A model generated the notes under the pieces. It had not been told where the DNA came from and ran no database searches. It was given only the letters and a program-made list of their open reading frames with translations. A program made the position numbers and the translations under genes. Positions 18,537 through 37,178 of a stretch of DNA of 64,000 nt are shown piece after piece (positions within the stretch are counted from its first letter, which is position 1; each line of letters begins with the position of its first letter). The stretch comes from Anaerolineae bacterium (lineage in GTDB: Bacteria; Chloroflexota; Anaerolineae; Aggregatilineales; Phototrophicaceae). The DNA is taken from assembly GCA_023382675.1 (NCBI GenBank), contig JAHDWN010000008.1:1-64000 (forward strand), written 5' to 3'.

Positions 18537-19328
18537 ATGGAGTTTGCGCGCGCGAACGGTATCACTCTGCATTTCAGGCAGGACGGCGCGGGGGATGGAA
18601 TGCCGCTGGTATTCCTGCATTCGTTGGGCTGCGATCTGCGCATCTGGGATGGCGTAGCGGCTCGGCTTACGCCGCACTATCGGATCGTGCGCATCGACAG
18701 CCGTGGGCATGGCTTGTCCGATTGTCCTCGTGCGCCGTACACAGTGGAGGATTTCGCCGAAGATGTGAACGCACTGCTGGATCGACTTAGCACCGAGCGC
18801 GTAGTATTGATTGGCATCTCTATTGGTGGGCAGGCGGCGATGCAAACCGCGCTGATGTTTCCAGAGCGCGTGGGAGCACTCGTCTTGTGCGACACGGCAG
18901 CGAAAATCGCGACGGCGGAGTACTGGGACGAGCGCATCAGCAATCTGCGCATGCGCGGCATGGCAGCGATGGCTGAGACGATCATGAGTCGCTGGTTCGC
19001 ACCCTCGTTTGCGGAGCGGCATCCGGCAGCGGTGCGCGGCTACTACAACCTGCTGACGCGAACGCCGCTGGAAGGCTACATCGGATCCTGTGCGGCTCTG
19101 GGCAGTGCGGATCTGGGTGCAGCCGTCGGTGAGATAGCCGTGCCAACGCTAGTTTTGTGCGGCGCAGAGGATGCAGCCACGCCACCGGATCTCGGGCGTG
19201 AACTAGCGAACAGCCTGCCGAACGCACACTTCGACACGATCGCGGACGCGGGGCATACGATCTGCGTTGAGCAGCCAGAAGCGACGGCAGCGGCGATTGC
19301 AGAGTTCATGAAGGCACAGACCTTATGA
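18537..19328 (+). CDS. pcaD: 3-oxoadipate enol-lactonase
   Basis: An alpha/beta hydrolase of 263 residues that hydrolyses 3-oxoadipate enol-lactone to 3-oxoadipate. Nucleophile Ser is in GISIGGQAA (about residue 97), the oxyanion region in FLHSLGCDLRIWD, the acid in LCGAEDAATPP and the His in DAGHTICVEQP. Start ATG 18537 has GAGGTGA upstream. It is second in the operon, and its stop overlaps a downstream ATG (ATGA at 19325), which bears on where pcaC begins. Alpha/beta hydrolases are hard to tell apart by motif, but the operon context makes PcaD likely. Confidence 0.9.
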   Translation: MEFARANGITLHFRQDGAGDGMPLVFLHSLGCDLRIWDGVAARLTPHYRIVRIDSRGHGLSDCPRAPYTVEDFAEDVNALLDRLSTERVVLIGISIGGQAAMQTALMFPERVGALVLCDTAAKIATAEYWDERISNLRMRGMAAMAETIMSRWFAPSFAERHPAAVRGYYNLLTRTPLEGYIGSCAALGSADLGAAVGEIAVPTLVLCGAEDAATPPDLGRELANSLPNAHFDTIADAGHTICVEQPEATAAAIAEFMKAQTL

Positions 19329-19350
19329 CGGAGACAGGTACGAGACGGGG

Positions 19351-19722
19351 ATGCGGGTGCGGCGCGAAGTATTGGGCGATGCGCATGTCGATCGCGCCGA
19401 ATCCAACAAGACGGCGTTTGACACTGACTTCCAACGGTTGATCACAGAGATGGCCTGGGGCAGTGTCTGGTCGCGACCAGGGCTGGATCGTGCCACCCGT
19501 CACCTGTTGACCATCGCGATTCTGGCAGCGCTGGGCAAAGAACGCGAACTAGCGATGCACATCCGCGCCACGCAGAATACCGGCGTAACACCCGATCAGA
19601 TCAAGGAAGCCTTGCACCAGGTCGCGCTCTACGCCGGAATTCCCGCCGCCAATTCGGCTTTTGACGTAACAAAAAGGACTTTTGCGCAAATGGCGAGTGA
19701 TGTTCACGAGGAGACGGACTGA
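19351..19722 (+). CDS. pcaC: 4-carboxymuconolactone decarboxylase (5' end possibly frameshifted)
   Basis: Small all-helical CMD protein that decarboxylates 4-carboxymuconolactone to 3-oxoadipate enol-lactone. Family text is clear: VRREVLGDAHVDRAE, LDRATRHLLTIAIL and TQNTGVTPDQIKEALHQ with VALYAGIPAA. The first usable ATG is 19351, but homologues carry about nine further residues (an RYETGM-like stretch). That text is present just upstream (DRYETG, 19333-19350) without a start codon. An ATG overlapping the pcaD stop (19325) would supply it if one base were restored around 19331, so the 5' end looks frameshifted, by a real or a sequencing deletion. Stop and the next ATG overlap (TGATG at 19720-19724). 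Confidence 0.88.
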   Translation: MRVRREVLGDAHVDRAESNKTAFDTDFQRLITEMAWGSVWSRPGLDRATRHLLTIAILAALGKERELAMHIRATQNTGVTPDQIKEALHQVALYAGIPAANSAFDVTKRTFAQMASDVHEETD

Positions 19723-20444
19723 TGCAGGAGCTACCAAGAGTATTGACATCATTGGACTGGAACGTGCAACCGCCTTACCTGCACGCCCCATACAAATCGA
19801 CCGTGCTGCGCTCACCACAGAAGCCGCTGATCCCGCTGCCGCAGACCCTGTCGGAATTGACCGGTCCGGTCTACGGGCACGAAAACATCCGGCCACTCGA
19901 CAACGACCTGACCAAAAATGCAGTCGTCAACGGTGAACCGGTTGGCGAGCGCATTATCGTCGTCGGGCGAGTGATCGATGAAGACGGCAGACCAGTTCCA
20001 AATGCGTTGATTGAAGTCTGGCAGGCGAATGCGTGCGGACGATATATTCACAAGAATGACCAGCACCCCGCGCCGCTCGACCCGAATTTCACCGGCGCAG
20101 GACGCGTCCTCACGGACGCCAATGGTGAGTATCGATTCACAACGATCAAGCCGGGCGCGTACCCGTGGCGCAATCACGAGAATGCCTGGCGACCGGCGCA
20201 CATCCACTTCTCGATCTTCGGCACAGCATTCATCTCGCGGCTGGTGACACAGATGTTTTTCCCCGGCGATCCGCTGATGCCACTCGACCCAATCTACAAC
20301 GGCATCCCGGATGAGAATGGGCGCAAACGCCTGATCTCGGAATATGCGCATGATATCACCGAGCCGGAATGGGCGCTCGGCTACCGCTTCAATATCGTGC
20401 TCAACGGCAGCCGGATGACCCCGTTCGAGACAAAGGATGCGTAA
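19722..20444 (+). CDS. pcaH: Protocatechuate 3,4-dioxygenase beta subunit
   Basis: Intradiol ring-cleavage subunit holding the Fe(III). About 240 residues. Ligands are visible: Tyr in NACGRYIHKND (about residue 107), Tyr in PGAYPWRNHENAW (about 146) and the His pair in RPAHIHFSIFG (about 160 and 162). The core beta-sandwich text RVIDEDGRPVPNALIEVWQ is typical. It pairs with PcaG encoded next, one base after its stop. It converts protocatechuate to 3-carboxy-cis,cis-muconate. The start is coupled to the pcaC stop. Confidence 0.95.
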   Translation: MQELPRVLTSLDWNVQPPYLHAPYKSTVLRSPQKPLIPLPQTLSELTGPVYGHENIRPLDNDLTKNAVVNGEPVGERIIVVGRVIDEDGRPVPNALIEVWQANACGRYIHKNDQHPAPLDPNFTGAGRVLTDANGEYRFTTIKPGAYPWRNHENAWRPAHIHFSIFGTAFISRLVTQMFFPGDPLMPLDPIYNGIPDENGRKRLISEYAHDITEPEWALGYRFNIVLNGSRMTPFETKDA

Positions 20445-21023
20445 ATGAAACACATGCAAACCCCCAGCCAGACGGTCGGCCCATTCTTTCATTACGGATT
20501 GATGGTTGAGCAGGATCAGAACGTGCTCTATGACGAGATGACGCGTGGCCAGCGCATCCACATCAAAGGGCAGGTGATCGACGGCAAGAGTCAGCCCGTA
20601 ACCGACGCGATGATCGAGATCTGGCAGGCAGACGCGGGCGGACATCACAATCATCCCAGCGATCCGAATCAGGCCCAGGCTGACCCACACTTCAAAGGCT
20701 TTGGCCGCGTGGACACCGTGCATAACGGCCAGTTCCTATTCAGGACGATCAAGCCGGGCCGTGTCGCCTATGATGCGGAGGCGGATCAAGCGCCGCACAT
20801 CAACGTACGTGTGTTCTCGCGCGGGATGCTGATACACGCCTACACTCGGCTCTATTTTTCGGACGAAGAAGAGGCCAACAAAACCGACCCAGTGCTCAAC
20901 CTCGTACCCGCCGACAGGCGCTATACCCTGGTGGCCTCGCGCGAAGATACCGGCGAGCTGCCGACCTATTGTTTTAATGTCGTGCTGCAAGGCGAAATGG
21001 AAACCGTCTTCTTCAACCCATGA
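20445..21023 (+). CDS. pcaG: Protocatechuate 3,4-dioxygenase alpha subunit
   Basis: 192-residue paralogue of PcaH lacking the iron ligands. It starts with the characteristic TPSQTVGPFFHYGL, has DAMIEIWQADAGG and a degenerate active-site stretch (APHINVRVFSRGM). It forms the (alpha-beta) protomer with PcaH and shapes the substrate pocket. It begins directly after the pcaH stop, and its own stop overlaps the pcaB start (ATGA at 21020). Confidence 0.94.
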   Translation: MKHMQTPSQTVGPFFHYGLMVEQDQNVLYDEMTRGQRIHIKGQVIDGKSQPVTDAMIEIWQADAGGHHNHPSDPNQAQADPHFKGFGRVDTVHNGQFLFRTIKPGRVAYDAEADQAPHINVRVFSRGMLIHAYTRLYFSDEEEANKTDPVLNLVPADRRYTLVASREDTGELPTYCFNVVLQGEMETVFFNP

Positions 21024-22366
21024 TAGGCACCATGATCGAACCGACACTCCTGACCCGTACCTTCAGCGACGACACCGTTGCCACACTGTTCTCCGACGCG
21101 GAGTTCATCGCTCAGATGCTGGCGGTCGAAGCAGCGCTGGCGAAAACGCAGGCGGCACTCAGCGTCATCCCGCACGAAGCGGGAGAGCGCATCAATGCGG
21201 CGCTGGCGAACCTCGCGGTTGATATGGACGCACTGCGTGCCGGAGTGGATACCGATGGGGTGCCGACGATTGCGCTTGTCAAACAACTTCGGGCACAGGT
21301 GAGCGGCGAAGCGGCAACATATGTCCACTGGGGCGCGACGACACAGGATGTGATGGATACGGCGCTGGTACTGCAAGTTCGTGCGGCGCTAGCAGAGATC
21401 GATACGCGGCTGCGTTCGGTCATCGGCCATCTGGCGCGGCTGGCGGACACGCATCGTCACAGCCTGATGGCCGGTCGAACGCACTCTCAGCAAGCAGTGC
21501 CGATCACATTTGGGCTCAAGGTCGCGGGCTGGCTTGTGCCGCTATTGCATCACCGTGAGCGACTCGAGCAGATCAAGCCGCGTGCCCTGGTCGTGCAATT
21601 TGGCGGCGCGGCGGGCACGCTGGCGGCTCTGGGTGATGATGGCCTGCGAGTGCAGTCAGCGCTGGCAGCGGAACTCAATCTCGGCGTGCCACTGACGCCA
21701 TGGCATACACAGCGGGACGCGCTGGCCGAGGTCGCGGGCTGGCTGTCATTGGTGACAGGCAGCCTGGCAAAGATGGCGCAGGACATCATCTTGCTGGCGC
21801 AGAGCGAGATCGGCGAGCTGCGCGAGACGGACGACGCAGCGCGCGGCGGGTCGAGCACAATGCCGCAGAAGCACAACCCGGTAATGAGTGAGGCCATCGT
21901 CGCGGCGGCAAAGGTGAATTCGACCCTGGTTGGCGCGATGCACCAGGCGCTGATTCAGGAGCAGGAGCGCGCGACCGGCGGCTGGCAGATCGAATGGCTG
22001 GCCCTGCCGCAGATGTTCGCGCTGACGGCGAGCGCGCTTTCAAGGGCGGCCTATCTGAGCGAGCATCTGGTCGTGGATACGGCACGGATGCGCGCCAGCC
22101 TAGACGCCTCGAACGGCCTGATGATGGCCGAGGCGCTCAACCAGGCGCTCGCACCGCACATGGGAAGAGTCGAGGCGAAGCAGCTTATCCAGGCGGCGTG
22201 CGCGGATGCTGTGAAGCAGGATCGCCATCTGACCGATGTCGTGCGCGAGCGGACAGACGCTGCGGTCGATTGGGCCGCGCTTCGCGACGAATCAACCTAT
22301 CTGGGCACGGCACAGACAATGATTGACCGCGTATTAGATGCAGCAAACAGACAAGGTGAAACATGA
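21020..22366 (+). CDS. pcaB: 3-carboxy-cis,cis-muconate cycloisomerase
   Basis: Fumarase/aspartase superfamily enzyme, 448 residues, that lactonises 3-carboxymuconate to 4-carboxymuconolactone. The family signature [11 protein letters not shown] lies at about residues 278-288, with a conserved [13 protein letters not shown] and [10 protein letters not shown] earlier. ATG 21020 overlaps the pcaG stop; ATG 21032 is an alternative. Its stop overlaps the pcaF start, so the operon is translationally coupled here. Confidence 0.94.
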
Positions 22367-23634
22367 GCGAAGTCGTCGTTGTCAGCGCGGTTCGCACACC
22401 CATCGGGCGCATCCGCGGCGCACTCTCTGACGTGCGCCCGGATGATCTGGCCGCCCTCGTGATCAAAGCAGCGGTACAGCGTGCGGGCATCGACCCGGCG
22501 CTGATCGAAGAGGTCTACATGGGCTGCGCCAATCAAGCGGGCGAAGATAACCGCAATGTGGCACGCATGGGCGCACTGCTGGCCGGGCTGCCGCACCACG
22601 TGGCAGCGGTGACGTTCAATCGCCTGTGCGCCAGCAGCCTCAACGCTGTCAACCAGGCCGCACGTGCGATCAAATGCGGCGAGGGCGACGTGTTCGTCGC
22701 GGGCGGCGTCGAGAGCATGACGCGCGCACCCTACTCGCTGCCTAAGAACCCGGCCGGCTTCGGCCCGTCCGGCAACATCACCGGTTGGGATACGACACTC
22801 GGCTGGCGCTACCCCAACCCGGCCCTGGAAGCGCTGTTTCCGTTAGAGGCAATGGGCGAAACGGCCGAGAATATCTATGCAATGAGCCGCGCCGGGCAGA
22901 TCGCGGGGGGTGAGATCAGCCGCGCGGAGCAGGATCGCTTCGCGTTGCAAAGCCAGCAGCGCGCCGTTGACGCCATCAACAACGGAAGCTTCCAACGCGA
23001 GATCGTGCCCGTCGTCGTTCCGCAGCGTAAAGGCGATCCGGTCTTCGTCGATACCGACGAGCACCCGTTCTACCGCAAGACCGAAACAGGCTATGAAGTT
23101 GCGACCAACCTGGAAAAACTCGGCAAGCTCGCACCCGCCTTCCGTACGGGCGGAACGGTGACAGCGGGCAATTCGAGCGGCCTGAACGATGGCGCGTGCG
23201 CGCTGGTGCTCATGTCGCGCGAGAAAGCGGACGCCCTGGGGATCAAGCCGCTGGCGCGCTGGCTGGCATCGGCAGCGACGGGCGTCGATCCGCGCGTGAT
23301 GGGCCTGGGGCCGGTCGAAGCGACACGCAAGGCGCTGGCACGGGCCGGGCTGACACTGGATCAAATCGACCTGGCGGAACTCAACGAAGCCTTCGCCGTG
23401 CAGTCCATCGCCGTCATGCGCGAGCTTGGCCTGCGTGAAGACATCACCAACGTGAATGGTGGCGCGATTGCACTCGGCCATCCACTCGGCTGCTCCGGTG
23501 CGCGCATCCTGACCACACTGATCCATGCGCTGCACGCGCGCGCTGAGCAAGGCCAGCCGCTGCGCTACGGACTGGCGACACTCTGCGTCGGCGTTGGCCA
23601 GGGCGAAGCGACGATCATCGAACTCATGCGCTAA
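22363..23634 (+). CDS. pcaF: 3-oxoadipyl-CoA thiolase
   Basis: Thiolase of 423 residues that splits 3-oxoadipyl-CoA into succinyl-CoA and acetyl-CoA, the last step of the pathway. Acyl-accepting Cys is in [11 protein letters not shown] (about residue 90), the active-site His in [11 protein letters not shown] (about 374) and the second Cys in CVGVGQGEA (about 408). Start ATG overlaps the pcaB stop. The operon position favours a PcaF role over a general acetyl-CoA acetyltransferase. Confidence 0.92.
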
Positions 23635-23644
23635 AGGGCAGCAG

Positions 23645-24991
23645 ATGATGAAACACGTTCCCCAGATCACCGCCGAGGCAGCCGCCACGTTGGTCAAGGA
23701 TGGCGACGTCTTGATGGTCGGCGGCTTTGGCATGACCGGCAATCCGGTGCATCTGCTGCACGCGCTCGCCGACACGCAAACGCGCGATCTGGTCTACATC
23801 GCCAACAACGTCGGTGAGCCGGGTCTGGGCGGCGGGCGGCTGCTGCGCAACGGGCAGATCAAGAAAGCCATTGGCTCATTCTTCACCAGCAACCCGGAGG
23901 CGGTCAAGGCGGCACAGTCCGGCTCGATGGCGTTCCAGCTGCTGCCCCAGGGGTCGCTGGCCGAGGCCATCCGCGCCGGCGGCGCGGGCATCGGCGGCTT
24001 CTTTACCCCGGCAGGTGCGGGCACAGTCATCGCCGCGGACAGCGAGACGCGCAGCATCGACGGCCGTCCGCACGTATTCGTCCCGGCGCTGCGCGCGAAC
24101 GTGGCCTTCATCCGCGCCTGGCTCGCAGATACGGCGGGCAACCTCGTCTACCGCATGACGGAACAGAACTTCAACAAAGCCATGGCGACCGCCGCCGATC
24201 TCGTCATCGCCGAGGTCGAGCAGATCGTACCCGTCGGCCAGATCGACCCCAATCAGGTGCATACGCCGGGCAGCTACGTTGATTATCTGGTACAGGCGCG
24301 CACGACGCTGGAAGACCTGGGCACATCCGCTGGGGTCGAGCAGTCACGCAAGAAGGTGGACGCGGCGCGTATGAACATGGCACAGCGGGCACTGGCGGAA
24401 CTCAAACGCGGCGACGTGGTCAACCTCGGCGTCGGCATCCCGACTCTGGTCGCCGATCTGATCAGTGCCGAGCACGGAATCATCCTGCACACCGAGAACG
24501 GGATGCTCGGCGTCGGGCCCGCGCCGGAAGCCGGTGGCGCGCTGGATTACCCCGTCAACGCGGGCAAAGTACCGGTGACGGCTCTGCCCGGCAGCAGCTA
24601 TTTCGACAGTGCGGATTCCTTCGCCATGATCCGCGGCGGCCACATCGACGTGGCGATCATGGGCGGCTTGCAGGTTGACGAGCGGGCGAACCTCGCTAAC
24701 TGGGCCGTGCCGGGCAAGCCGCTGCTCGGCGTCGGCGGCGCGATGGATCTGGCATCCGGCGCGCGGCGCTTAATCATCACCATGACGCACACGAATAACG
24801 ACGGTTCGCCCAAGATCGTGCCTGAATGCGATCTGCCGCTCACAGCGACCGGCGCGGTCGATATGATCATCACTGAGCTGGCGGTCTTCACATTCGAGGA
24901 CCGAACACTCACACTGATCGAACTCATGCCCGGCGCGACACTGGACGAGGTGTGCGCGAAAACGAGCGCTGCGTTTGCCGAGCAGCTTTAG
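23645..24991 (+). CDS. pcaIJ: 3-oxoadipate CoA-transferase, alpha and beta subunits fused
   Basis: ATG 23645 with a GGCAG region upstream, ten bases after the pcaF stop. Residues about 1-225 match the A subunit of class I CoA-transferases ([20 protein letters not shown]), and residues about 240-448 match the B subunit ([18 protein letters not shown]). The covalent-CoA Glu lies in [11 protein letters not shown] (about residue 287). Most bacteria have two genes; here a short linker joins them in one chain, as in mitochondrial SCOT. It activates 3-oxoadipate with succinyl-CoA. It ends the operon; 24992-25243 downstream holds nothing I can assign. Confidence 0.93.
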
Positions 24992-25243: not shown

Positions 25244-26206
25244 CTATTCATCGATTGGTGGCGTTCCATAGGTGTGGAAACTCTTGACTGTTTGTAATCC
25301 CCATGCCTGCCCCTTCTTGCGCTCCTCTTCATTCCATGTACATGTTTTCCAATCAGGGGCAAAGATTAGCCGGGCACCTGCGTTGGCAATTTCAAAGCGA
25401 TTGCCGCCCGGTTCAAAGACGTACAGGAAAAACGTCTGATTAATGGCGTGTTTGTGCGGACCGGTTTCGATCGGAACGTTGTTGTCCAAGCAAATGTCAG
25501 CTGTCTTTAATACGTCTTCGCGACAATCAACGGCAAAAGTCACATGATGAAGGCGACCCGAATGTCCGGTATGGTCGGCAACAATGGCGATTTCATACGA
25601 TTTATTGGTCACGGAAAACCACACTGCCTGAACCCTACCATCGTCAAATACGATCTGTTCGGTAAGCTTGGCACCCAGCACACTAGAAAAGAACTCACGT
25701 TCTTTTGCCGGATCAGCAACCATGATATTGACATGATCCAGACGGCGCAAGTTTGCACCGCGTGCTGGGAACTTCATCGCCTGATTCTTCAGCGCGGGCT
25801 TGAGTTCGTCGGGTGGGGCGTACCAGTCGGTTTCGTAATAAATCTCCATCAAGTGACCGTCGGGGTTGTTAAACTGATACGTTCGCCCATGCCCAAGGTC
25901 ACCATCTGTCCATTGCAGGCCATAACCTGCCGCTTCGATTGCCTGAGCGCGCCGCTCTAGCGCCTGCGGACTGGTCGTGCGCCACCCCATATGTCCGATA
26001 CCAGGCTGGTCGTTTGCCGTGAGTTTGAGCGTGTGGTGTTCGTAGTCATCCCAGCCGCGAAGGTATACCGAGTCTCCGTGCCGGGTTGTTTCCGTTAATC
26101 CCATGATATTGACGAAAAAATCCACGCTTTCATCAAGTTTGGGTGTGTACATTTCAACATGCCCCAGATGGGCAAGATCAAAAATGGGTTCACTCGCTTG
26201 GATCAT
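25244..26206 (-). CDS. Extradiol ring-cleavage dioxygenase, VOC (catechol 2,3-dioxygenase) superfamily
   Basis: 320 residues with two VOC modules (about 13-130 and 155-275), the size of two-domain type I extradiol dioxygenases. Probable Fe(II) ligands are His in DLAHLGHVEMYT-type text or the second-module His in LDHVNIM, His in RLHHVTFAVD and Glu in GNRFEIANAG. Upstream neighbours encode a 4-oxalomesaconate hydratase-like protein and a CHA-type aldolase, so the substrate is probably a dihydroxylated or trihydroxylated benzoate rather than catechol. It is the last gene of the operon, 17 bases after the PIG-L gene. The protocatechuate 4,5-dioxygenases I know are of the unrelated LigAB type. Confidence 0.85.
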   Translation of the reverse strand: MIQASEPIFDLAHLGHVEMYTPKLDESVDFFVNIMGLTETTRHGDSVYLRGWDDYEHHTLKLTANDQPGIGHMGWRTTSPQALERRAQAIEAAGYGLQWTDGDLGHGRTYQFNNPDGHLMEIYYETDWYAPPDELKPALKNQAMKFPARGANLRRLDHVNIMVADPAKEREFFSSVLGAKLTEQIVFDDGRVQAVWFSVTNKSYEIAIVADHTGHSGRLHHVTFAVDCREDVLKTADICLDNNVPIETGPHKHAINQTFFLYVFEPGGNRFEIANAGARLIFAPDWKTCTWNEEERKKGQAWGLQTVKSFHTYGTPPIDE

Positions 26207-26223
26207 TTTGGTTCCTCAATTCA

Positions 26224-26937
26224 CTATAATTCAGAAATAACCAGCGGAACCATACGTTGCAGTGCCTCCGCATATCTAACCTCCTGCCTGCCGGAAATCC
26301 TACGAGCATGATTTCCACGGCGGGATGCTAGTTCCGTATAGTAGTCCTTGAGATAGCTTTGCGCTCCCATGACCGACATGGCCTCAACTTTTTGTTGGAA
26401 GACTGGCGTTATGTCAATGAACGTGTCCGGGTAAAACTCTGATAGTTCGGGCTGATGCGGCTCAAATAGATACCAGTCAGGCGGATTGATGCGTGCAAAT
26501 GCGCTGGCGACACCTGCACCGGAAACCAGCAGCCGCGCCTGCTGCACCGCCTGATAGGCGACTGGATGATCCGGATTAAAAGGATCGACTGCGGTATGGG
26601 TGAGAATGACGTCTGGCACTTCACGTCGCATTACTTCGATCAGTTTGTCCATCGCGCCATCATCCATGCGCAGGGGATAGTCGCCGAGATCAAGGCACTC
26701 GAACCGCGCACCAACGATGGATGCGGCTTGTTCTGCCTGTACATGCCGTATGCGTTTGACATTCTCGATTGTCTGGTCGGATTGCTTCCACAATTCGCCA
26801 GATTCGCCACGTTCTCCGTAGGACAGGGCCAGAACAAGGGCATCGCCGCCGCGCGATGTCGTGACGGCAATTGTCCCAGCAGAACGCCACAGAAAATCGG
26901 CTGAATGCGCGCCAACGACCAAAAGTTTCTTAGACAT
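26224..26937 (-). CDS. galB: PIG-L/LmbE-fold protein, 4-oxalomesaconate hydratase (GalB-like)
   Basis: 237 residues of the LmbE fold. The usual AHPDDE metal motif is replaced by GAHSADFLWR, and SYGERGESGELWK and FEPHQPE follow. From memory, this combination is characteristic of GalB, which hydrates 4-oxalomesaconate to 4-carboxy-4-hydroxy-2-oxoadipate (CHA) in gallate breakdown, rather than of sugar deacetylases. Metal ligands probably include the His of GAHSAD and the His of DPFNPDHPVAYQ. It overlaps the next upstream gene by 8 bases. The aldolase needed for the next step is encoded in the same operon. Confidence 0.8.
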   Translation of the reverse strand: MSKKLLVVGAHSADFLWRSAGTIAVTTSRGGDALVLALSYGERGESGELWKQSDQTIENVKRIRHVQAEQAASIVGARFECLDLGDYPLRMDDGAMDKLIEVMRREVPDVILTHTAVDPFNPDHPVAYQAVQQARLLVSGAGVASAFARINPPDWYLFEPHQPELSEFYPDTFIDITPVFQQKVEAMSVMGAQSYLKDYYTELASRRGNHARRISGRQEVRYAEALQRMVPLVISEL

Positions 26938-27862
26938 ATTTCCCTGCTCCCTCTGCTAGGCGCGCCGGATTCACAACGCAAAGTTGATGCACTTCGTCAT
27001 CGGTAAAACCCCCTTCAAAGGCTTTGTCTGCCATCAAAGCAAGCCCGTCTTCTACAGGGGGGTTCTTCGGCTGACCGAGGTCTGTGCTGAAGAAAGAATT
27101 CTCGATGCCCGTCTCACGAACGTTCTCGAACATCTGCTGCCATGGGTATTTACCACTGTGATAGGTGACGAAACAGCGTTCGAGCATGGCCCCGCGCTCC
27201 GCCAGCAGCCTCTGATCATCGAGGGAGATGTCCTGGGTTGGAAACTCCGGATGAGTAATGACGATGCGCTTCACCCCTTGGGCGACAGCTTCGTCGACCA
27301 CGGCGAATATCTCATCGCGTCCCAGATGTCCGGTGGCGAGAATGAGGTCATTCTTCGCAATGTTCTTGATCACTTCGACCGTGTCGGGCAGCAGCCGCCC
27401 ATCGGCATCTACTACCGAGATTGTTCCCTTAAGCAATCCCTCTTCCTTCAGTTCATTTTGGAGACGTACCCACTGCGGTGGTGGCACACCCGGCGCATAT
27501 TCATGAAGTTGTTTCGCCTCGTTTTCAGCATCGACCGTTGGAAACCAAACAACGCTGATGCCATCGCGTGAAGCCATTTCAACGGCGAGGGCGTTCATGC
27601 CTCCAACTGCCGCATTGAGGGTGATCGACCCCATTGTCTTGACAGCGGGAACAGCTTCGCGCGCAAGGGCAGCCCGCCCGCCCGTCTCAGAGTAATGATG
27701 CTTGATGACGTATCCCCCTAGACCTTGCGCCTCAAAGGCGCGGGCAATCTGGAGATCGCTGCCGATCCGCTTCATGACATCGGGTCCGCTGTGGACATGC
27801 AAGTCAAAACCGCCTTTGACAACGTCGCGTGCCCGTTGCGAGATTGGCAGGCTGTTGCTCAT
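26930..27862 (-). CDS. Amidohydrolase-like protein (DUF6282-type), candidate pyrone/lactone hydrolase
   Basis: 310 residues. It opens with a metal-site motif close to those of amidohydrolases (GGFDLHVHSGPDVMKR). It continues with ATGHLGRDE, VITHPEFPTQ and FSTDLGQPKNP, where His and Asp residues typical of a TIM-barrel hydrolase recur. I recall this type as DUF6282, with no assigned reaction. In LigI pathways an amidohydrolase opens 2-pyrone-4,6-dicarboxylate to 4-oxalomesaconate; the gene lies next to the putative 4-oxalomesaconate hydratase, so I infer the same step. Both ends overlap neighbours (8 and 4 bases), which indicates tight coupling. Confidence 0.7.
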   Translation of the reverse strand: MSNSLPISQRARDVVKGGFDLHVHSGPDVMKRIGSDLQIARAFEAQGLGGYVIKHHYSETGGRAALAREAVPAVKTMGSITLNAAVGGMNALAVEMASRDGISVVWFPTVDAENEAKQLHEYAPGVPPPQWVRLQNELKEEGLLKGTISVVDADGRLLPDTVEVIKNIAKNDLILATGHLGRDEIFAVVDEAVAQGVKRIVITHPEFPTQDISLDDQRLLAERGAMLERCFVTYHSGKYPWQQMFENVRETGIENSFFSTDLGQPKNPPVEDGLALMADKAFEGGFTDDEVHQLCVVNPARLAEGAGKYV

Positions 27863-28629
27863 TCGAATGCTTCCCCTTCCAGTAATTCAGACAAGCGTTG
27901 GCGCGCTGCCAAACTGCAATGCGCTTTAACGTCAATCGAGTCCAGTAGTTCAATAACCGCATCCATCTCGTGAATCCGGCGACGTGCATGTTTGCGGCTA
28001 CCGTTGACAAATCGGTCGATCATCGGCTCGTTCTGCAAGATGGTCAACATCTGCTCACGTGCATAAGCGGTGAGCCCGACCTTTTGGGCAGCTTCGAGCG
28101 TTTCCATGACAACGGCCGCGAGACCTTTATAGAAGATGCTGCGGACGAGTTTGAGCGTGGCAGCATGACCAGCCGGTTCATCGAACACCTTGATCGGCGC
28201 GCCAAACGGTTCGTACACTTCAGCAAATTGGGCAGCGCCCGGACCACTCGCCAATAATGGCGTCCGAATACCCTCCAACGCGATGGGTGCCAGAATGGCA
28301 ACGTCGGTGAAGACAAACTCACCGCCTTCGAACAGCAGCGCAACATTCTGCTTGACCGTCGGCCCGCTGGTGTTCATATCAGCGTAGATTTGCTTCGCTT
28401 TCAAGACTGGCAAGATTTCTCGAGCGACGTCGACCGCGACGGCCGCCAGATTAACGCTCAGAATCAGATCTGCTTGTTTGGCGGCGTCGGGGTTGCTGTC
28501 AGCAAAGTGTAGTCCGTCAGGCAAATTACGCGGGTTCGGATCCCAGCCTGTAACCGTGACACCCTGCGCAAGCAGGTCACGGGCCAGGGTTGACCCCACT
28601 TCGCCGATACCCAGTATCGCGACATGCAT
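27859..28629 (-). CDS. NAD(P)-dependent dehydrogenase, 3-hydroxyacid/6-phosphogluconate dehydrogenase-like with DUF1932-type C-terminus
   Basis: 256 residues. The N-terminal Rossmann fold starts MHVAILGIGEVGSTLARDL and has YADMNTSGPTVK and LASGPGAA. The C-terminal helical half (VRSIFYKGLAAVVMETLEAA) matches the DUF1932-type partner domain. In a protocatechuate 4,5-cleavage route a dehydrogenase must oxidise 4-carboxy-2-hydroxymuconate semialdehyde hemiacetal to 2-pyrone-4,6-dicarboxylate (LigC does this with a different fold). This gene is the only oxidoreductase available in the operon. The role is inference; the family call is firm. Confidence 0.75.
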   Translation of the reverse strand: MHVAILGIGEVGSTLARDLLAQGVTVTGWDPNPRNLPDGLHFADSNPDAAKQADLILSVNLAAVAVDVAREILPVLKAKQIYADMNTSGPTVKQNVALLFEGGEFVFTDVAILAPIALEGIRTPLLASGPGAAQFAEVYEPFGAPIKVFDEPAGHAATLKLVRSIFYKGLAAVVMETLEAAQKVGLTAYAREQMLTILQNEPMIDRFVNGSRKHARRRIHEMDAVIELLDSIDVKAHCSLAARQRLSELLEGEAFE

Positions 28630-28635
28630 AGTCGC

Positions 28636-29250
28636 CTACTTCCACCCGTATATCTCTAGGGTTGTCTTTCCCGAACGAAGCTGTGCGAAGGTGCTGTTTT
28701 CTTTTCCCACTCGCGCTTCAGACTTTTCGGCAGCTTCGGCAACTCTGGCGGCAGGGACCACGACGATACCATCGCGGTCGCCCAGCACAAAGTCACCCGG
28801 CGCAATCGTGACCTCATTGATGGTGATGGGGCAGTTCAGTGAGCCGTCGCCGTGCTTCGTCGTCCCGCGAATGCACAGCCCACGACAAAACACGGGGAAC
28901 CCGAGACGTTCGATAGCGTCGGCATCGCGGACGCAGCCGTCGATGACCAGACCCGCTATGCCACGCTCCATCGCCGCAACTGACAGTATTTCGCCCCAAT
29001 AGCCCGCTTCAAAGTAACCTGACATCCGGGCGACCAGGACATCGCCGGGTTCTGCATTCGCGACCGCGCGGTGCAGCAGGTAGTTGTCGCCAGGCATTGA
29101 GTCGATTGTGTAGGCTCGACCTGCCAGCTTCATTGCCGGGCTAATGGGCTTCAGAGCGGAGGGCAGCGCGCCCTGCTTTCCAATCGCCTCGTGGATCGTC
29201 GCGGCGGAATGTTCGGCAAGCCGCTTGAAGGCGTCTGTTTGGTCCGTCAT
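28636..29250 (-). CDS. RraA-fold aldolase, CHA/HMG aldolase type
   Basis: About 204 residues from ATG 29250. Upstream in-frame codons give an unlikely N-terminus. RraA-like fold with the metal and substrate motif VIDGCVRDADAI (G-x-x-R-D), preceded by GEILSVAAMERG, and VLGDRDGIVVVP near the end. Members with this motif cleave 4-carboxy-4-hydroxy-2-oxoadipate to pyruvate and oxaloacetate (LigK/GalC/ProA) or 4-hydroxy-4-methyl-2-oxoglutarate. The adjacent GalB-like gene makes the CHA reaction the natural choice. It is the first catabolic gene after the transporter, 76 bases below livK. Confidence 0.8.
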   Translation of the reverse strand: MTDQTDAFKRLAEHSAATIHEAIGKQGALPSALKPISPAMKLAGRAYTIDSMPGDNYLLHRAVANAEPGDVLVARMSGYFEAGYWGEILSVAAMERGIAGLVIDGCVRDADAIERLGFPVFCRGLCIRGTTKHGDGSLNCPITINEVTIAPGDFVLGDRDGIVVVPAARVAEAAEKSEARVGKENSTFAQLRSGKTTLEIYGWK

Positions 29251-29326: not shown

Positions 29327-30553
29327 TCAGTCGCCTATCGCCTCACGTTCCTCAAAGGGAGGGGCGGGATAAACCAGATCGGCGGTCGCGAATTCGAGTG
29401 GGTAGACCAGCTCGGCACGACCATGCTGATATTGCAGGATGGCGGTCGGGACATTGCCCGTACCATCTTCATTGAAGGTCACATGACCGATGACCGTATC
29501 CATATCGGTTGCAGCCATCGCGTCGCGGATAGCGTCACGGTCGAGAGTCCCGGCAGCTTCGACAGCTGCCGCCGTGATCTGGACAGTCGCATACGCCGGA
29601 CCGACGAGTGGGTCTGCGGGACGTCCCATCATCTCGATGTGCTGTTCGTTCAGCGCATCGACGCCTTCAAACGCCATTGCGTTGTGCCAACCGGGCATGA
29701 ACGCAACGTAGTCGCCATTCGAACCGAGCGCTTGAATCCATGTGGGCGCATCTGGCGCGCGGATGATGTTGGAGAAAGGCGGCACCCAACCAAGCTCCGC
29801 CATCTGCGTCACGATGGCAATGCCATCGGGCGGGCTGGGCAGCGCCAGCAAGATTTGTACGTCTGCGTCGCGCATCGCCAGAATCAGATCGCTGAAGTCC
29901 TGTGTTCCCGGCGTATATTCTTCGTGAGCGACGATTTCGTAGCCATTTGCTTCGGCGTCTTCAGTCCAGAATGATGCAAACTCGATGCCCCAGTCGGTGG
30001 ATTCCTGCAAAATGCCGACCCGCGTCGGGCGAATGTCCTCGTCCAGAGTATTGAGCAGTTCAAAAGTCACGCGGCTCATGTCTGGCGACTTGGGAAACGG
30101 CGAGAACAGATAGTGGTAGCCCTGCTGGTGGATATCCCACAGCGCAAAAGCGACGCCGATATAGGGCGTTGCGTTCACTTCACCGACGGCGGCGGCAGCG
30201 GCGTGCATGTCACTGCCAAAACCGCCGAGGTAGACGACCACGTCGTTATTACTGTACAGATCTTCCAGGTTGCTGACCGCCTTCACGGGGTCTGATTCGT
30301 CGTCCAAGATGGTCAGGTTGATGGGAATCTGCCGTCCGTACTCCTCCACGTAGATGCCGCCATCGGCGTTGATGTTGTCAACCGCCATCCGGTAGCCCCG
30401 CTCAACCTGCGCTGCGGGTCCCGCATAGCGCCCGGAAAGGGGAATAGATGCCCCCCACTCGATGAACTCAGGACCATTGTCCTGAGCGACCGCGCTGATA
30501 CTTGACAGCAAGAACAGCACGATCAACGCAATTGCAAATAACAAACGTTTCAT
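29327..30553 (-). CDS. livK: Liv-type ABC transporter substrate-binding protein
   Basis: About 408 residues. ATG 30553 has a strong site (GGAGGAG) and starts a signal peptide (MKRLLFAIALIVLFLLSS, ending AVAQD); the longer frame from 30613 is unlikely. The periplasmic-binding fold type I text GASIPLSGRYAGPAAQVERG and INLTILDDESDPVKA is diagnostic of HAAT binding proteins, which serve amino acids but also aromatic acids. Context with ring-cleavage genes suggests an aromatic acid ligand. It lies between the permeases and the enzyme genes of the operon. Confidence 0.88.
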   Translation of the reverse strand: MKRLLFAIALIVLFLLSSISAVAQDNGPEFIEWGASIPLSGRYAGPAAQVERGYRMAVDNINADGGIYVEEYGRQIPINLTILDDESDPVKAVSNLEDLYSNNDVVVYLGGFGSDMHAAAAAVGEVNATPYIGVAFALWDIHQQGYHYLFSPFPKSPDMSRVTFELLNTLDEDIRPTRVGILQESTDWGIEFASFWTEDAEANGYEIVAHEEYTPGTQDFSDLILAMRDADVQILLALPSPPDGIAIVTQMAELGWVPPFSNIIRAPDAPTWIQALGSNGDYVAFMPGWHNAMAFEGVDALNEQHIEMMGRPADPLVGPAYATVQITAAAVEAAGTLDRDAIRDAMAATDMDTVIGHVTFNEDGTGNVPTAILQYQHGRAELVYPLEFATADLVYPAPPFEEREAIGD

Positions 30554-30645
30554 GTCAACTCCTCCTCTATTCTCAGTTCTATTCCGAAGCGAAACACGCT
30601 CCGTCACCACCAATTATTAAGGGCTGCCAGACCAACCAGCACCGT

Positions 30646-31587
30646 CTAGTGCTCGGTCGACGCGCCAGCCGGAATCAAGCGTTGTCCTCGTCGCTTGAGT
30701 AGTTCCACGAACCCGCCCGGCAGCAGCAAAACGATTGCAATGAACAGGATGCCAAAGATGATCAGATGTATATTGACCAGATTGGCTGCCAGCACGTCCC
30801 GGATCAGCACAAAGAAGATTGCGCCAAGCAAAGGGCCCGCCACCGTGCCCACACCGCCGACATAGGTGACAATGACCGCATCGAATGTCCAGACGGGACC
30901 AAACGTGTAGTTTGGGTAGTAGCCAACATGGAAGAAGGCGAACGCGCCGCCCGCCAGCCCTGCGAAGAAAGCGCTCAAGACAAATGCCAACATTGAGTGC
31001 AGAAATACATTGACGCCAAGCGACCGTGCCGCTTCCTCGTCTTCGCGTACAGCCATCATGCCAAGTCCGATTCTCGACCGGCTCAACCACACGGAGACCC
31101 CGACGATCAGCGCCAGCACGACTAGCGCCAAGTAGTAGCGCGGCTCGATGTCGTAGACGCGCAGTTCCGGCCCCGGCAACCGTGAGACGCGCGGCAGGAC
31201 ATTGCCCACGGTCAGGCGCATCGCTTCTGCCAGTGCCAGCGTACCTATAGCGAAATATGTCCCTCGCAGCCTCAGGGCGGGCGCGCCCACAATCAACGCC
31301 ACAATGGCGGCGACGACTCCGCCGACGGCGAGGGCAGCGAGGATATGCCAACCCTGATCCAGCCACAGGCTGCGCGTCACCAGCGAGCCGATCCCGAAAA
31401 ACGCGCCATGCCCCAGATTGATGTGCCCGACAAAGCCCCCGAGGATGTTCCAACTTGACGACAACGCCGCCAGGATGAACAAGGAGATTAGCAAGGTAAG
31501 CAGGTCTTTTTCACCGAAGGGTAGCTGGGGCAGCGCGATTAGGGCGACAACCAGCAGCAGGATTGCTCCGGTTCTCCAGTTAAGCAT
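30646..31587 (-). CDS. livM: Liv-type ABC transporter permease LivM
   Basis: About 313 residues from ATG 31587 (GGAGG seven bases upstream; the Ser-rich extension from 31674 is an artefact of overlap with livH). About nine hydrophobic segments and the LivM signature text WNILGGFVGHINLGHGAFFG and VGGVGTVAGPLLGA. It overlaps livH by 8 bases. Forms the membrane channel with LivH. Confidence 0.88.
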   Translation of the reverse strand: MLNWRTGAILLLVVALIALPQLPFGEKDLLTLLISLFILAALSSSWNILGGFVGHINLGHGAFFGIGSLVTRSLWLDQGWHILAALAVGGVVAAIVALIVGAPALRLRGTYFAIGTLALAEAMRLTVGNVLPRVSRLPGPELRVYDIEPRYYLALVVLALIVGVSVWLSRSRIGLGMMAVREDEEAARSLGVNVFLHSMLAFVLSAFFAGLAGGAFAFFHVGYYPNYTFGPVWTFDAVIVTYVGGVGTVAGPLLGAIFFVLIRDVLAANLVNIHLIIFGILFIAIVLLLPGGFVELLKRRGQRLIPAGASTEH

Positions 31588-32464
31588 GGGAACCTCCGAA
31601 CAATCCTTGCGGGCGGATGCTGAGGATGATGAGGAAGATGACGATCCCGACGAGTTCGCGATACGCACCGCCAAAGGCGAGGGCGCTGGCAGATTCCGCC
31701 ACGCCTAGCAGGACGCCCGCCAGAAACGTCCCCGGCACGCTGCCTAGTCCGGCGAGGACGACCACGATCAGGGCTTTGAGTGTCCACTGCAAGCCGATGT
31801 TCGGGCTCACACTACCCTGCAGGGTCACAAGCATGCCGGCCAGCCCTGCCAAGGCTGCGCCCAGCGCGAACGTGACGAGGTAGGTACGGCGAATGTCGAT
31901 GCCTGCGAGCGCGGCAGTCCGCCAATCTTCGGCGGTGGCGCGGATGGCTTTGCCCCAATAGGTACGACGCAAAAACCACCGCAGAGCGACCACCACGATG
32001 ATGCCGATGATCAGCCCGGAAAAGCGAACCAGCGGCAGGCGTATGCCGAGTATTTCCCACGCAGCGGTGGAATAGGAAGTCGTGATGCTGCGCTCGTCAG
32101 CGGTGAAGAGGTGCGTCGCGAGCGTTTGCAGGATCAGGGTCAAGCCGAAGCCGATGAGCAGCGAGTTCTTGATGCGGTCTTCTTCGTCGAAGCGCACCAC
32201 ACGCGCGAACAACCCAAAATGCAGTGCAAGCCCAATCAGGAACAGCCCCGGTACGACGATCAGGAGCGAGAGATAGGGGTCGAGTCCGAGCAGGTTGAAC
32301 GCCCAGAACGACCCATAGCCCCCAAGCATGATCAATTCGCCATGTGCTACGTTGAGGATTTTCAGCACGCCAAAAACGATTGACAGCCCTAGCGCTGCCA
32401 GCCCGTAAAGCGAGCCGATCAAAGCGCCAAATAAGAGGGTTTGAACAATTGTCTCAATCGACAT
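31580..32464 (-). CDS. livH: Liv-type ABC transporter permease LivH
   Basis: About 294 residues from ATG 32464 (a TTG at 32479 is possible). LivH text includes YGLAALGLSIVFGVLKILN then VAHGELIMLGGYGSF near the N-terminus and VVLAGLGSVPGTFLAGVLLG in the C-terminal half. Multi-spanning membrane protein. It starts 11 bases after livF ends and overlaps livM. Confidence 0.88.
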   Translation of the reverse strand: MSIETIVQTLLFGALIGSLYGLAALGLSIVFGVLKILNVAHGELIMLGGYGSFWAFNLLGLDPYLSLLIVVPGLFLIGLALHFGLFARVVRFDEEDRIKNSLLIGFGLTLILQTLATHLFTADERSITTSYSTAAWEILGIRLPLVRFSGLIIGIIVVVALRWFLRRTYWGKAIRATAEDWRTAALAGIDIRRTYLVTFALGAALAGLAGMLVTLQGSVSPNIGLQWTLKALIVVVLAGLGSVPGTFLAGVLLGVAESASALAFGGAYRELVGIVIFLIILSIRPQGLFGGSHA

Positions 32465-32475
32465 AACAGTCCCGC

Positions 32476-34084: not shown

Positions 34085-34729
34085 TTAGGGTCTGATAATA
34101 TCCCAATACTGCTCAATATCTGCTTTGAGATTCGCCATGTGTCTGCGAAAGGCCGTATCAATACCTCCCAGGTTGTTTCCCTTGAGCGCATTCAGCAGCG
34201 CCTCATGCTCAGCTAAAGAACTTTTCCCACGCAATGGGATCATAACCTTCCGCAGGACGACCCGCCCCGTGATCAGCAACAGGCTGTCGGCAAGCTGCCT
34301 GAGATGCGGACTATCAGAAATATCGAGAATCAGGACGCGAAAATTAATGGCAGAAGATGAATAGAGATCAAAATCATTTTCATCGATTGCCGTCCGCATT
34401 TTTTCAATCAGTTCTTCGAGCTTCGCGAGATTACCCTTTGTCATTCGTGAAAACGCCCGGCGGTATGCTTCCAGTTCCAGGGCCTCGCGCGCGACGAAGA
34501 CATCTAGAATCGACTCCAGGGTGACATCGGTGACCGCTGCGCCCTGGTTGGGCTGCAAATCAATCAAGCCGTCGGCGACAAGACGTTGAAAAGCCATACG
34601 CACATGATTTCGGCTGACCCCTAGTTCTTCAACAACCTTGGCTTCAGTCAATCTTTGGGCTGGCCGAAATTCCCCAGACAAAATCTTGTCTCTTAGGATC
34701 TTGTACGTGTCAACCGTCCGCTTCGCCAC
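34085..34729 (-). CDS. GntR-family (FadR/FCD-type) regulator of the meta-cleavage operon
   Basis: About 214 residues. GTG 34729 has AAGGA six bases upstream and is preferred to the TTG at 34795, which would put the promoter inside the gene. N-terminal winged helix (TYKILRDKILSGEFRPAQ, then VEELGVSRNHVRMAFQRL) and an all-helical FCD ligand domain (SILDVFVAREALELEAYRR, then FRRHMANLKADIE). Encoded on the same strand, 177 bases upstream of livG. It likely represses or gates this operon in response to an aromatic intermediate. Confidence 0.88.
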   Translation of the reverse strand: MAKRTVDTYKILRDKILSGEFRPAQRLTEAKVVEELGVSRNHVRMAFQRLVADGLIDLQPNQGAAVTDVTLESILDVFVAREALELEAYRRAFSRMTKGNLAKLEELIEKMRTAIDENDFDLYSSSAINFRVLILDISDSPHLRQLADSLLLITGRVVLRKVMIPLRGKSSLAEHEALLNALKGNNLGGIDTAFRRHMANLKADIEQYWDIIRP

Positions 34730-34754
34730 ACTCGCGTCCTTTCTTGATGGATAG

Positions 34755-34795
34755 AAAGTAACATCAATCGGAAATGTTGTCAATATATTTGACAA
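34755..34795 (-). promoter_or_regulatory. Promoter with overlapping 19-bp palindrome upstream of the GntR gene
   Basis: Palindrome TTGTCAA-TATAT-TTGACAA at 34777-34795. On the minus strand its inner end supplies an exact -35 TTGACA (34778-34783), followed 17 bases later by a weak -10 TACTTT (34755-34760). The overlap fits autorepression by the GntR protein. The predicted start of translation is 26 bases beyond the -10. Confidence 0.5.
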
Positions 34796-35151
34796 TATTG
34801 TTCACAATTTTGCCAACCAAGACAGATCACCACGAGTGAATTCAATCAGCCCATAGAAGTCAAACGAGCATAATCGAAGATGAGCAGGCTCCCAATCAGA
34901 ACAATTGTGGTTCCAGCGGCGGACTGACGCAGGGTGTTCGCGATCTCCAGACTCAGCGAAAGCTGATTTGGGCGGCAATCAAGAGCGATACACTGAGCTT
35001 TGACTTCGTCATCATCGTCACTGCGACCACAGCCCGGTTGCGCGGGCATGTTGCAGATAGAACGCAACTCCGATTCTGATCTCGGTGTGGACTTCAACAA
35101 GTTTTCCACGAATTCAGCCAGATTTGATTAGGCGCGGGACTTACACTGCTG
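34796..35151. other. Intergenic stretch with no supported gene
   Basis: An 87-codon frame exists on the minus strand (34846-35109), but it has no family text, no good ribosome site and a composition unlike its neighbours. I see no RNA gene or repeat. It lies between the GntR promoter and repeat copy 2. Confidence 0.4.
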
Positions 35152-35851: not shown

Positions 35852-36069
35852 GTTCATCAACAGCGAATCCACGATGAATTGCTTCGATTAGACGAACGAC
35901 GACTTATGGTAACCCGACTTCTCGCAACTTCCTCCACTCACTCGCGAAGCACATCTGATTCTGTGCATACCTGTTAAAAGTTTGCTGTCTGTCTTGTGCA
36001 CAATGAAGCCTGCAGGTAGCGTGATCCGTGTTATACTCTCGGCCACAATTAACCACACGGGAGGGAATC

Positions 36070-37128: not shown

Positions 37129-37143
37129 GCGAAAGGGATTTTG

Positions 37144-37178
37144 ATGCTGGTGGGAGCGATGGTTCCCATCAGCATTTT
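37144..37178 (+). terminator. Hairpin between binding-protein and permease genes (partial terminator)
   Basis: ATGCTG-g-TGGGA pairs with TCCCA-t-CAGCAT, followed by a short T-run (37175-37178). Such hairpins after binding-protein genes usually raise the amount of that message relative to the permeases. Confidence 0.6.

What the first reader, a model, noticed from the sequence alone, without database searches (positions are those of the whole stretch)
25244..29250. Five-gene candidate for a non-orthologous protocatechuate/gallate 4,5-cleavage pathway
Known Lig route: dioxygenase, semialdehyde dehydrogenase, pyrone-dicarboxylate lactonase, oxalomesaconate hydratase, CHA aldolase. Here each step has one candidate in one coupled operon: VOC dioxygenase (not LigAB), a 6PGDH-like dehydrogenase (not LigC), a DUF6282-type amidohydrolase (LigI role), a GalB-like hydratase and an RraA-type aldolase. 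GalB and aldolase calls are fairly firm; the first three are inferred from order and chemistry. It would give this genome both ortho and meta routes.
Basis: partly seen in the sequence, partly recalled or inferred. Interest (0 to 1): 0.8.

Follow-up and report, generated by a model that had tools for sequence, protein, structure and literature searches.

The report
Alternative aromatic-acid ring-cleavage operon
A bacterium carries a five-gene set that probably breaks down plant-derived aromatic acids (protocatechuate or relatives) by a known chemical route but with unrelated enzymes in at least two steps, and similar sets recur in heat-loving and other bacteria.

Summary
The five genes exist, tightly packed on the - strand, behind a transporter and a GntR regulator. 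GalB (hydratase) and the RraA-type CHA aldolase are fairly firm. (1) The set recurs on a Thermus oshimai plasmid beside 4-hydroxybenzoate 3-monooxygenase, and in 14 of 80 named loci. (2) The VOC dioxygenase belongs to a clade whose members mostly sit with GalB/GalC/GalD, LigJ, a tannase or O-demethylases; several relatives outside it sit in catechol operons. (3) In three Acidobacteriota loci DUF6282 stands with LigC, LigJ, aldolase and a LigB-type dioxygenase; one such genome gave no LigI match while three other records in that search did. DUF6282 is thus the best candidate for a non-homologous PDC hydrolase; its predicted fold is an amidohydrolase barrel. The 6PGDH-like gene as LigC substitute is not established: it is missing from 11 of 26 VOC loci, and relatives occur with LigC or in a gallate operon. 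No activity was tested. I read it as a new variant of the 4,5-cleavage pathway, probably for protocatechuate; gallate or 3-O-methylgallate remain possible.

The parts
25244..26206 (-). VOC (type I) extradiol dioxygenase; Fe ligands H158, H221, E272; Tyr204 in place of the His of catechol/homoprotocatechuate dioxygenases
26224..26937 (-). GalB-type 4-oxalomesaconate hydratase (PIG-L family)
26930..27862 (-). DUF6282 amidohydrolase-fold protein, candidate PDC hydrolase (LigI position)
27859..28629 (-). 6PGDH-like/DUF1932 NAD(P) dehydrogenase, clade II; role uncertain (candidate semialdehyde dehydrogenase)
28636..29250 (-). RraA-type 4-carboxy-4-hydroxy-2-oxoadipate aldolase
29327..30613 (-). Periplasmic binding protein of a Liv-type ABC transporter
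   Evidence: PF13458 164 bits; a Liv-type transporter also stands in the Thermus cluster L038
30646..33907 (-). Four further genes of the Liv-type ABC transporter (permeases 30646-31674, 31580-32479; ATPases 32476-33183, 33170-33907)
   Evidence: ORFs; the names rest on my reading of the sequence and on position, not on a family scan
34085..34795 (-). GntR/FCD regulator
   Evidence: PF07729 and PF00392; a GntR gene stands in the Thermus cluster; matches at E 1e-6 in 37 of 80 loci, some of them weak
34777..34816 (.). Perfect palindrome TTGTCAATATATTTGACAA with two overlapping weaker copies at the GntR start: candidate operator
   Evidence: 8 matches in the window with up to 3 mismatches, 2.34 expected
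18537..24991 (+). Neighbouring ortho (3,4-cleavage) cluster PcaD, PcaC, PcaH, PcaG, PcaB, PcaF-like, fused PcaIJ

Best explanation
The operon is an importer plus a 4,5-cleavage (oxalomesaconate/CHA) pathway for a carboxylated catechol, most likely protocatechuate, assembled partly from enzymes unrelated to the Lig set. Proposed steps: a Liv-type ABC transporter imports the acid; the VOC dioxygenase opens the ring beside the diol to give the 4,5-fission product; an oxidation gives 2-pyrone-4,6-dicarboxylate (PDC), perhaps by the 6PGDH-like enzyme; DUF6282 hydrolyses PDC to 4-oxalomesaconate; GalB hydrates it to CHA; the RraA-type aldolase splits CHA into pyruvate and oxaloacetate. Supported by sequence: hydratase and aldolase. 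Supported by genomic context: the carboxylated-catechol class of the VOC enzyme and the PDC step of DUF6282. Inferred only: exact substrate, regiochemistry, transporter substrate, and the oxidation step.
For: GalB and aldolase. Same set on Thermus oshimai pTHEOS01 with PobA and a ring-hydroxylating oxygenase. Census of 80 loci: 25 of 26 VOC loci also have GalB and 25 of 26 an RraA aldolase; all five families in 14. VOC and LigB-type dioxygenase together in 0 of 80 loci (26 and 12 loci; Fisher 0.007, not corrected for kinship). VOC of the clade beside GalB-GalC-GalD-tannase on an Agrobacterium plasmid from walnut, beside GalB and GalD in L065 and L167, beside a LigI-like gene in Roseomonas, beside a DesA/LigM-type demethylase in 8 of 80 loci, all 8 of the DesA/LigM loci having VOC. 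Relatives outside the clade sit with DmpG (L173, L174, L176, and L162, L163) or HpaB (L168) and carry His at 204. DUF6282 with LigC and LigJ in L139, L140, L143, L145; no LigI match in any of 80+15 stretches nor in the genome of L143, with three matching records in the same search. Fold: pLDDT 93, amidohydrolase barrel, Z about 20, a lactonase (3pnz, Z 19.5) among the hits.
Against: TIGR03211 calls the VOC enzyme catechol 2,3-dioxygenase above its cut-off. 14 of 80 loci have DUF6282 with none of the partners sought, and 42 of 80 have neither VOC nor LigB-type dioxygenase in the DNA held (some contigs are short); 15 of these 42 have 6PGDH, DUF6282, aldolase and GalB or LigJ, and those read closely have ABC importer genes but no dioxygenase. 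Two His-type VOC genes outside the clade (L169, L170) lie near fragments resembling PobA with no Gal gene recognised, so PobA beside VOC is not specific. Chimaeribacter L161, inside the clade, shows none of the pathway genes sought within 6 kb. Nonomuraea L059 has VOC, GalB, aldolase and 6PGDH but no DUF6282; Alicyclobacillus dauci has DUF6282 and PIG-L at the end of its plasmid record and no VOC in the 9 kb before or 12 kb after. The LigI-like gene of Roseomonas is 46% identical to the Sphe3 one, but its best NCBIfam model is 4-sulfomuconolactone hydrolase, below cut-off, and the same cluster also has a LigB-type gene. The genome of L140 has a 39% LigI-like protein elsewhere. No PobA or DesA/LigM relative was found in the window's genome (without a control), so the supply is unknown. 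A fold shared by many hydrolases does not show PDC hydrolysis.
Confidence: 0.67

Rival explanations
1. The operon degrades gallate or 3-O-methylgallate, not protocatechuate; ring cleavage gives oxalomesaconate or PDC directly, no dehydrogenation is needed, and the 6PGDH-like enzyme does something else.
For: Members of the VOC clade stand beside GalD and a tannase and beside DesA/LigM-type demethylases; 11 of 26 VOC loci have no 6PGDH; a related dehydrogenase sits in a Klebsiella gallate operon.
Against: DUF6282 was not found in the VOC clusters with GalD or tannase (L065, L159, L167); the window's operon has no GalD and no DesA/LigM relative was found in the genome (no control); the four Thermaceae clusters with PobA (L038, L066, L071, L074) all have the 6PGDH-like gene.
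Confidence: 0.25
2. The VOC enzyme is an ordinary catechol 2,3-dioxygenase that happens to lie next to an unrelated set of genes.
For: Passes the TIGR03211 cut-off.
Against: None of the five genes is an aldolase, semialdehyde dehydrogenase or hydrolase of the catechol meta pathway; relatives of its clade keep company with GalB and aldolase (25 of 26 loci), several relatives outside it with DmpG; Tyr instead of His at 204.
Confidence: 0.08
3. The DUF6282-6PGDH-GalB-aldolase cassette acts on an imported non-aromatic or pyrone-type acid, and a dioxygenase is only sometimes added.
For: 15 of 80 loci have 6PGDH, DUF6282, aldolase and GalB or LigJ but no VOC or LigB-type gene nearby; those read closely carry importer genes.
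Against: The dioxygenase may lie elsewhere in those genomes (not searched); in the window, Thermus, Alicyclobacillus hesperidum and shizuokensis and Thermogemmatispora the VOC gene is in the cluster.
Confidence: 0.12

Closest known systems
Protocatechuate 4,5-cleavage (Lig/Pmd) pathway
   Same: Same proposed intermediates; CHA aldolase of the same family
   Different: VOC instead of LigB-fold dioxygenase, DUF6282 instead of LigI, PIG-L GalB instead of LigJ, no LigC in the operon
Gallate (gal) operon, as in Klebsiella L064
   Same: GalB and a CHA aldolase; a distant DUF1932 dehydrogenase is present in the Klebsiella operon
   Different: Dioxygenase of another fold; no GalD in the window's operon; DUF6282 added
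Type I extradiol catechol 2,3-dioxygenases (TIGR03211; PDB 3lm4, 9wgj)
   Same: Family, His-His-Glu iron ligands, above the model cut-off; 9wgj also has Tyr at the position of Tyr204
   Different: Against 3lm4 and catechol-type rows: Tyr at the acid-base His position; genomic company of the oxalomesaconate pathway
Vanillate/syringate O-demethylation route (DesA, LigM; named from the NCBIfam models)
   Same: Thermomicrobium-group relatives of the operon carry a DesA/LigM-type O-demethylase, and in L045 folate genes
   Different: No such gene found in the window's genome (no control)

Membership tests
Canonical Lig protocatechuate 4,5-cleavage pathway | LigB-fold (PF02900) dioxygenase | tested here: not met
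   No PF02900 match in the genome; control rang in 4 of 14
Canonical Lig protocatechuate 4,5-cleavage pathway | LigC (Gfo/Idh/MocA) dehydrogenase | tested here: inconclusive
   None in the operon; elsewhere 20 matches, best 29% over 225 residues
Canonical Lig protocatechuate 4,5-cleavage pathway | LigI PDC hydrolase | tested here: not met
   No match in G000; three other records matched in the same search; assembly 96% complete
GalB 4-oxalomesaconate hydratase | Sequence kinship to solved GalB rather than to other PIG-L proteins | tested here: met
   5cgz 1e-59, next 7e-5; 43-45% to records annotated galB
CHA aldolase (LigK/GalC) | Curated model cut-off | tested here: inconclusive
   Above NF006731 (194/179), below TIGR02798 (178/304.5); best PDB hit 3noj
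Catechol 2,3-dioxygenase (TIGR03211) | Model cut-off | tested here: met
   352 against 320 bits
Catechol 2,3-dioxygenase (TIGR03211) | Acid-base His (role and numbers recalled: XylE H199, HPCD H200) | tested here: not met
   Tyr204 in the window and 25 other rows of the tree; His in the 14 rows outside the clade and in 4 Solirubrobacterales inside it
Catechol 2,3-dioxygenase (TIGR03211) | Activity on catechol | not testable with these tools
   needs enzyme
Amidohydrolase superfamily (DUF6282) | TIM barrel with His/Asp metal-site residues | tested here: met
   Model pLDDT 93.3, Z about 20 to many members; H24, H179, H204, D261 invariant in 28 sequences and HxH in 12; that these bind metal is inference
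PDC hydrolase | Hydrolysis of PDC | not testable with these tools
   needs enzyme; context only
LigC-type semialdehyde dehydrogenase (function) | 6PGDH-like gene present where LigC is lacking and oxidation is needed | tested here: inconclusive
   LigC and 6PGDH together in 0 of 80 loci (5 and 31 loci, Fisher 0.15), but other-clade relatives occur with LigC in L147, L148

The most novel reading that the evidence does not exclude
A second, largely non-orthologous 4,5-cleavage pathway, spread over at least six bacterial phyla including aerobic thermophiles: a Tyr-type VOC protocatechuate/gallate 4,5-dioxygenase class, a new PDC hydrolase family (DUF6282) and a 6PGDH-fold semialdehyde dehydrogenase, with VOC swapping against LigB-type dioxygenases and DUF6282 against LigI.
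Probability: 0.3. Interest if true: 0.8.

Novelty: new variant of a known kind. Interest (0 to 1): 0.62.

Why it matters
It would give a function to DUF6282 (no paper in the held open-access library names it), correct an automatic label that calls these dioxygenases catechol 2,3-dioxygenases, and predict protocatechuate, vanillate or syringate use in Thermus, Meiothermus, Thermomicrobium, Thermogemmatispora and Alicyclobacillus. A 2020 paper stated that no aerobic thermotolerant pathway for S-lignin had been elucidated (PMC8027834, passages). Thermostable enzymes around PDC could be of use for PDC polymers (inference). The Tyr-for-His change makes a question about acid-base catalysis testable in natural enzymes.

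Tried and rejected
LigC elsewhere in the genome: only generic Gfo/Idh/MocA matches. Strict 'one gene per step' reading of the 6PGDH-like gene: weakened. Idea that DUF6282 replaces GalD: rejected as a rule, since both occur together in 6 of 80 loci. Idea that Tyr204 marks the whole carboxylated-catechol group: 4 Solirubrobacterales loci with GalB and aldolase keep His. Identity as a marker of function: L168-L170 are 53-56% identical to the window yet have His, with HpaB beside L168 and PobA-like fragments near L169 and L170. Of the ten stretches, L171, L172 and L175 (all His) showed no telling neighbour. Distant DUF6282 proteins (L040-L044, 30-37%) do not show the five-gene company; L042 even has two LigI-like genes. 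The first genome-contig scan with a single protein gave no relatives; the alignment scan did and kept the best 80 of 181. Literature: searches showed no paper on this cassette in the held open-access library, judged from listings and the passages named below; the paper on the protocatechuate 2,3-cleavage genes was not held, so I could not compare PraA. The P450 beside pca has no telling solved relative. Counts from the 80 loci are conditional on DUF6282 and include close kin (three Thermogemmatispora, several of the Thermomicrobium group); Fisher values ignore kinship. For the VOC tree I dropped L080 (truncated) and four near-duplicates (L070, L073, L133, L136); the tree adds ten rows to that set. 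Of the PobA matches in 5 of 80 loci, two (L106, L134; 28-30%) are too weak to count.
Full report
OBSERVATION. Family scans give VOC dioxygenase, PIG-L, DUF6282, a 6PGDH-like/DUF1932 protein and RraA. A 3,4-cleavage cluster lies next door on the + strand; its thiolase falls below the pcaF cut-off. So the genome does encode an ortho route beside this operon.

FIRM STEPS. The PIG-L protein is nearest to GalB among solved proteins (5cgz 1e-59; next 7e-5) and 43-45% identical to plasmid proteins annotated galB. The RraA protein is nearest to CHA aldolase 3noj and passes one of two CHA aldolase models. Both point to oxalomesaconate and CHA as intermediates.

CONSERVATION. The window's close relatives do not show the operon: among 61 genomes (own included) DUF6282 relatives occur in 5, the best other one by E-value at 36% identity, and VOC in 3, the others at 44% and 28%. 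Yet Thermus oshimai pTHEOS01 has VOC (62%), GntR, DUF6282 (52%), PIG-L (59%), RraA (35%) and 6PGDH (47%), next to a Liv transporter, an aldehyde dehydrogenase, PobA and a ring-hydroxylating oxygenase. A scan of species genomes with a DUF6282 alignment gave 181 relatives, of which the best 80 were kept. In these, at tblastn E 1e-6, RraA was found in 61, GalB in 51, GntR in 37, 6PGDH in 31, VOC in 26, a LigB-type dioxygenase in 12, DesA/LigM in 8, GalD in 6, PobA in 5 (two of them weak). All five families of the finding are together in 14 of 80, from six phyla (Deinococcota, Actinomycetota, Armatimonadota, Acidobacteriota, Chloroflexota, Bacillota; record titles, phyla); 14 of 80 have DUF6282 alone. 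Alicyclobacillus dauci has DUF6282 and PIG-L at the end of a plasmid record without VOC near by. Acquisition by horizontal transfer is the natural reading of this pattern; it is inference.

THE DIOXYGENASE. Of 26 VOC loci, 25 have GalB and 25 RraA. VOC and LigB-type genes share none of the 80 loci, as if one replaces the other, though Roseomonas L158, outside that set, has both. In other records the clade sits with GalB-GalC-GalD-tannase (Agrobacterium from walnut, L159), GalB-GalC-GalD (Roseibium L065), GalB-GalD (L167), LigJ (Methylobacterium L160) and a LigI-like gene (Roseomonas L158, 46% to that of Sphe3; NCBIfam's best model for it is 4-sulfomuconolactone hydrolase, below cut-off). Chimaeribacter L161 shows none of these genes within 6 kb. 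VOC relatives outside the clade sit with DmpG (L162, L163, L173, L174, L176) or HpaB (L168); L169 and L170 have PobA-like fragments near by, and L171, L172, L175 no telling neighbour. A tree of 44 proteins gives the oxalomesaconate-type clade 88/96 support (30 rows) and the Tyr204 group within it 88/73 (26 rows). Position 204 aligns with a His of the solved catechol 2,3-dioxygenases 7q2a and 3lm4 and, through the relative in L045, of homoprotocatechuate dioxygenase. It is Tyr in the window, and in 9wgj; it is His in all 14 rows outside the clade, but also in four Solirubrobacterales inside it. That this His is the acid-base catalyst is recalled, not from a call. In the phylum sample of 301 genomes, 14 VOC hits reach 380 bits; 10 lie within 5 kb of a DUF6282 hit; of the other four, G102 (L167) is Tyr-type with GalB and GalD, and G269 and G300 (twice) are His-type.

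DUF6282. In L143, L145, L140 and L139 (Acidobacteriota) DUF6282 is followed by a LigC relative (for L143, PmdC 9azo 1.7e-78, next 4e-17) and a LigJ relative (for L143, 2gwg 2e-156); in the first three an RraA aldolase and a LigB-type dioxygenase follow. L110 has LigC with GalB, aldolase and a LigB-type gene. These look like 4,5-cleavage operons without LigI. LigI sequences from Pseudarthrobacter Sphe3 (its pcaC; the gene list in PMC8431788 was seen in a figure-legend passage) and Azospirillum match none of the 80 loci nor 15 further stretches at 1e-8. A search of whole genomes and records found no LigI match in G000 or in the genome of L143, while three others in the same search rang: the Azospirillum and Roseomonas plasmids, and the genome of L140, at 39%. 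The structure model (pLDDT 93.3) is an amidohydrolase barrel with Z about 20 to dipeptidase, phosphotriesterase-like and dihydroorotase structures, a lactonase among the rows. This fits lactone hydrolysis but does not prove it. DUF6282 was not found in the VOC clusters with GalD or tannase (L065, L159, L167), where PDC should not be an obligatory intermediate (established pathway knowledge, recalled), and it is present with PobA or O-demethylases. Nonomuraea L059, with a 6PGDH-like gene but no DUF6282, and Propionibacteriales L098, with both GalD and DUF6282, do not follow this neat rule.

THE DEHYDROGENASE. A tree of 40 proteins splits two clades with 100/99 support. The window belongs to clade II (27 rows), none of whose 80-set loci has LigC near by; clade I includes proteins beside LigC (L147, L148) and in the Klebsiella gallate operon (L064). 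Within the 80 loci clade I does not meet LigC either, so the contrast rests on L147 and L148. The clade II enzyme may be a LigC substitute, but LigC and 6PGDH exclude each other only weakly (0 of 80; LigC in 5; Fisher 0.15), and 11 of 26 VOC loci lack it, five of them Thermomicrobium-group loci with a DesA/LigM-type demethylase (L069, L070, L072, L073, L076). Three DesA/LigM loci (L085, L092, L098) do have it. The demethylase scores higher on the DesA model but reaches only the LigM cut-off in L045 and neither in L076, so vanillate and syringate cannot be told apart. I put the LigC role at about 0.4.

VERDICT. Probabilities by step (my judgement): GalB 0.93, aldolase 0.9, VOC acting on a carboxylated catechol 0.78, DUF6282 as PDC hydrolase 0.7, 6PGDH-like as semialdehyde dehydrogenase 0.4. 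The VOC figure was lowered from 0.80 on re-checking, for L161, L169 and L170.

LITERATURE. Seen: search listings; abstract and outline of PMC8671467; passages of PMC8431788, PMC5209329, PMC8027834, PMC7814577, PMC12673573. In what I saw, none describes this cassette.

Noticed in passing
L081, L087, L088, L091, L096, L100, L101, L103, L105, L111, L128, L138, L142, L144: Actinomycete loci with 6PGDH, DUF6282, GalB or LigJ, and RraA but no VOC or LigB-type dioxygenase in the DNA held; those read closely also have ABC importer genes (NMT1-type binding protein in L111). What they import is unknown.
   Followed up: partly
L045, L069, L070, L072, L073, L076: Thermomicrobium-group clusters join VOC-RraA-GalB-DUF6282 with a DesA/LigM-type O-demethylase and, in L045, folate genes: a predicted aerobic thermophilic vanillate/syringate route.
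   Followed up: partly
25244-26206; PDB 9wgj: TIGR03211 labels the window and Thermus oshimai enzymes catechol 2,3-dioxygenase above its cut-off (the Agrobacterium one scores below it), and the closest solved protein, 9wgj, is deposited as 'Catechol 1,2-dioxygenase', which its VOC sequence does not fit.
   Followed up: no
34777-34816: Perfect TTGTCAA-N5-TTGACAA palindrome plus overlapping weaker copies at the GntR start; 8 matches in the window against 2.34 expected.
   Followed up: no
L175:6136-8640: In a genome of the same family (G036) a His-type VOC gene lies next to a binding protein 62% identical to the window's LivSBP.
   Followed up: no
23525-24991: PcaI and PcaJ (3-oxoacid CoA-transferase subunits) are fused in one ORF.
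   Followed up: no
14205-15296: IS481/IS3-like transposase gene near the pca cluster, below the curated cut-offs.
   Followed up: no
36028-42334: Polyamine/aminoethylphosphonate-like ABC transporter genes followed by an adenine deaminase-like amidohydrolase.
   Followed up: no
17254-18525: Cytochrome P450 directly upstream of PcaD; possible feeder of protocatechuate, no telling solved relative.
   Followed up: partly
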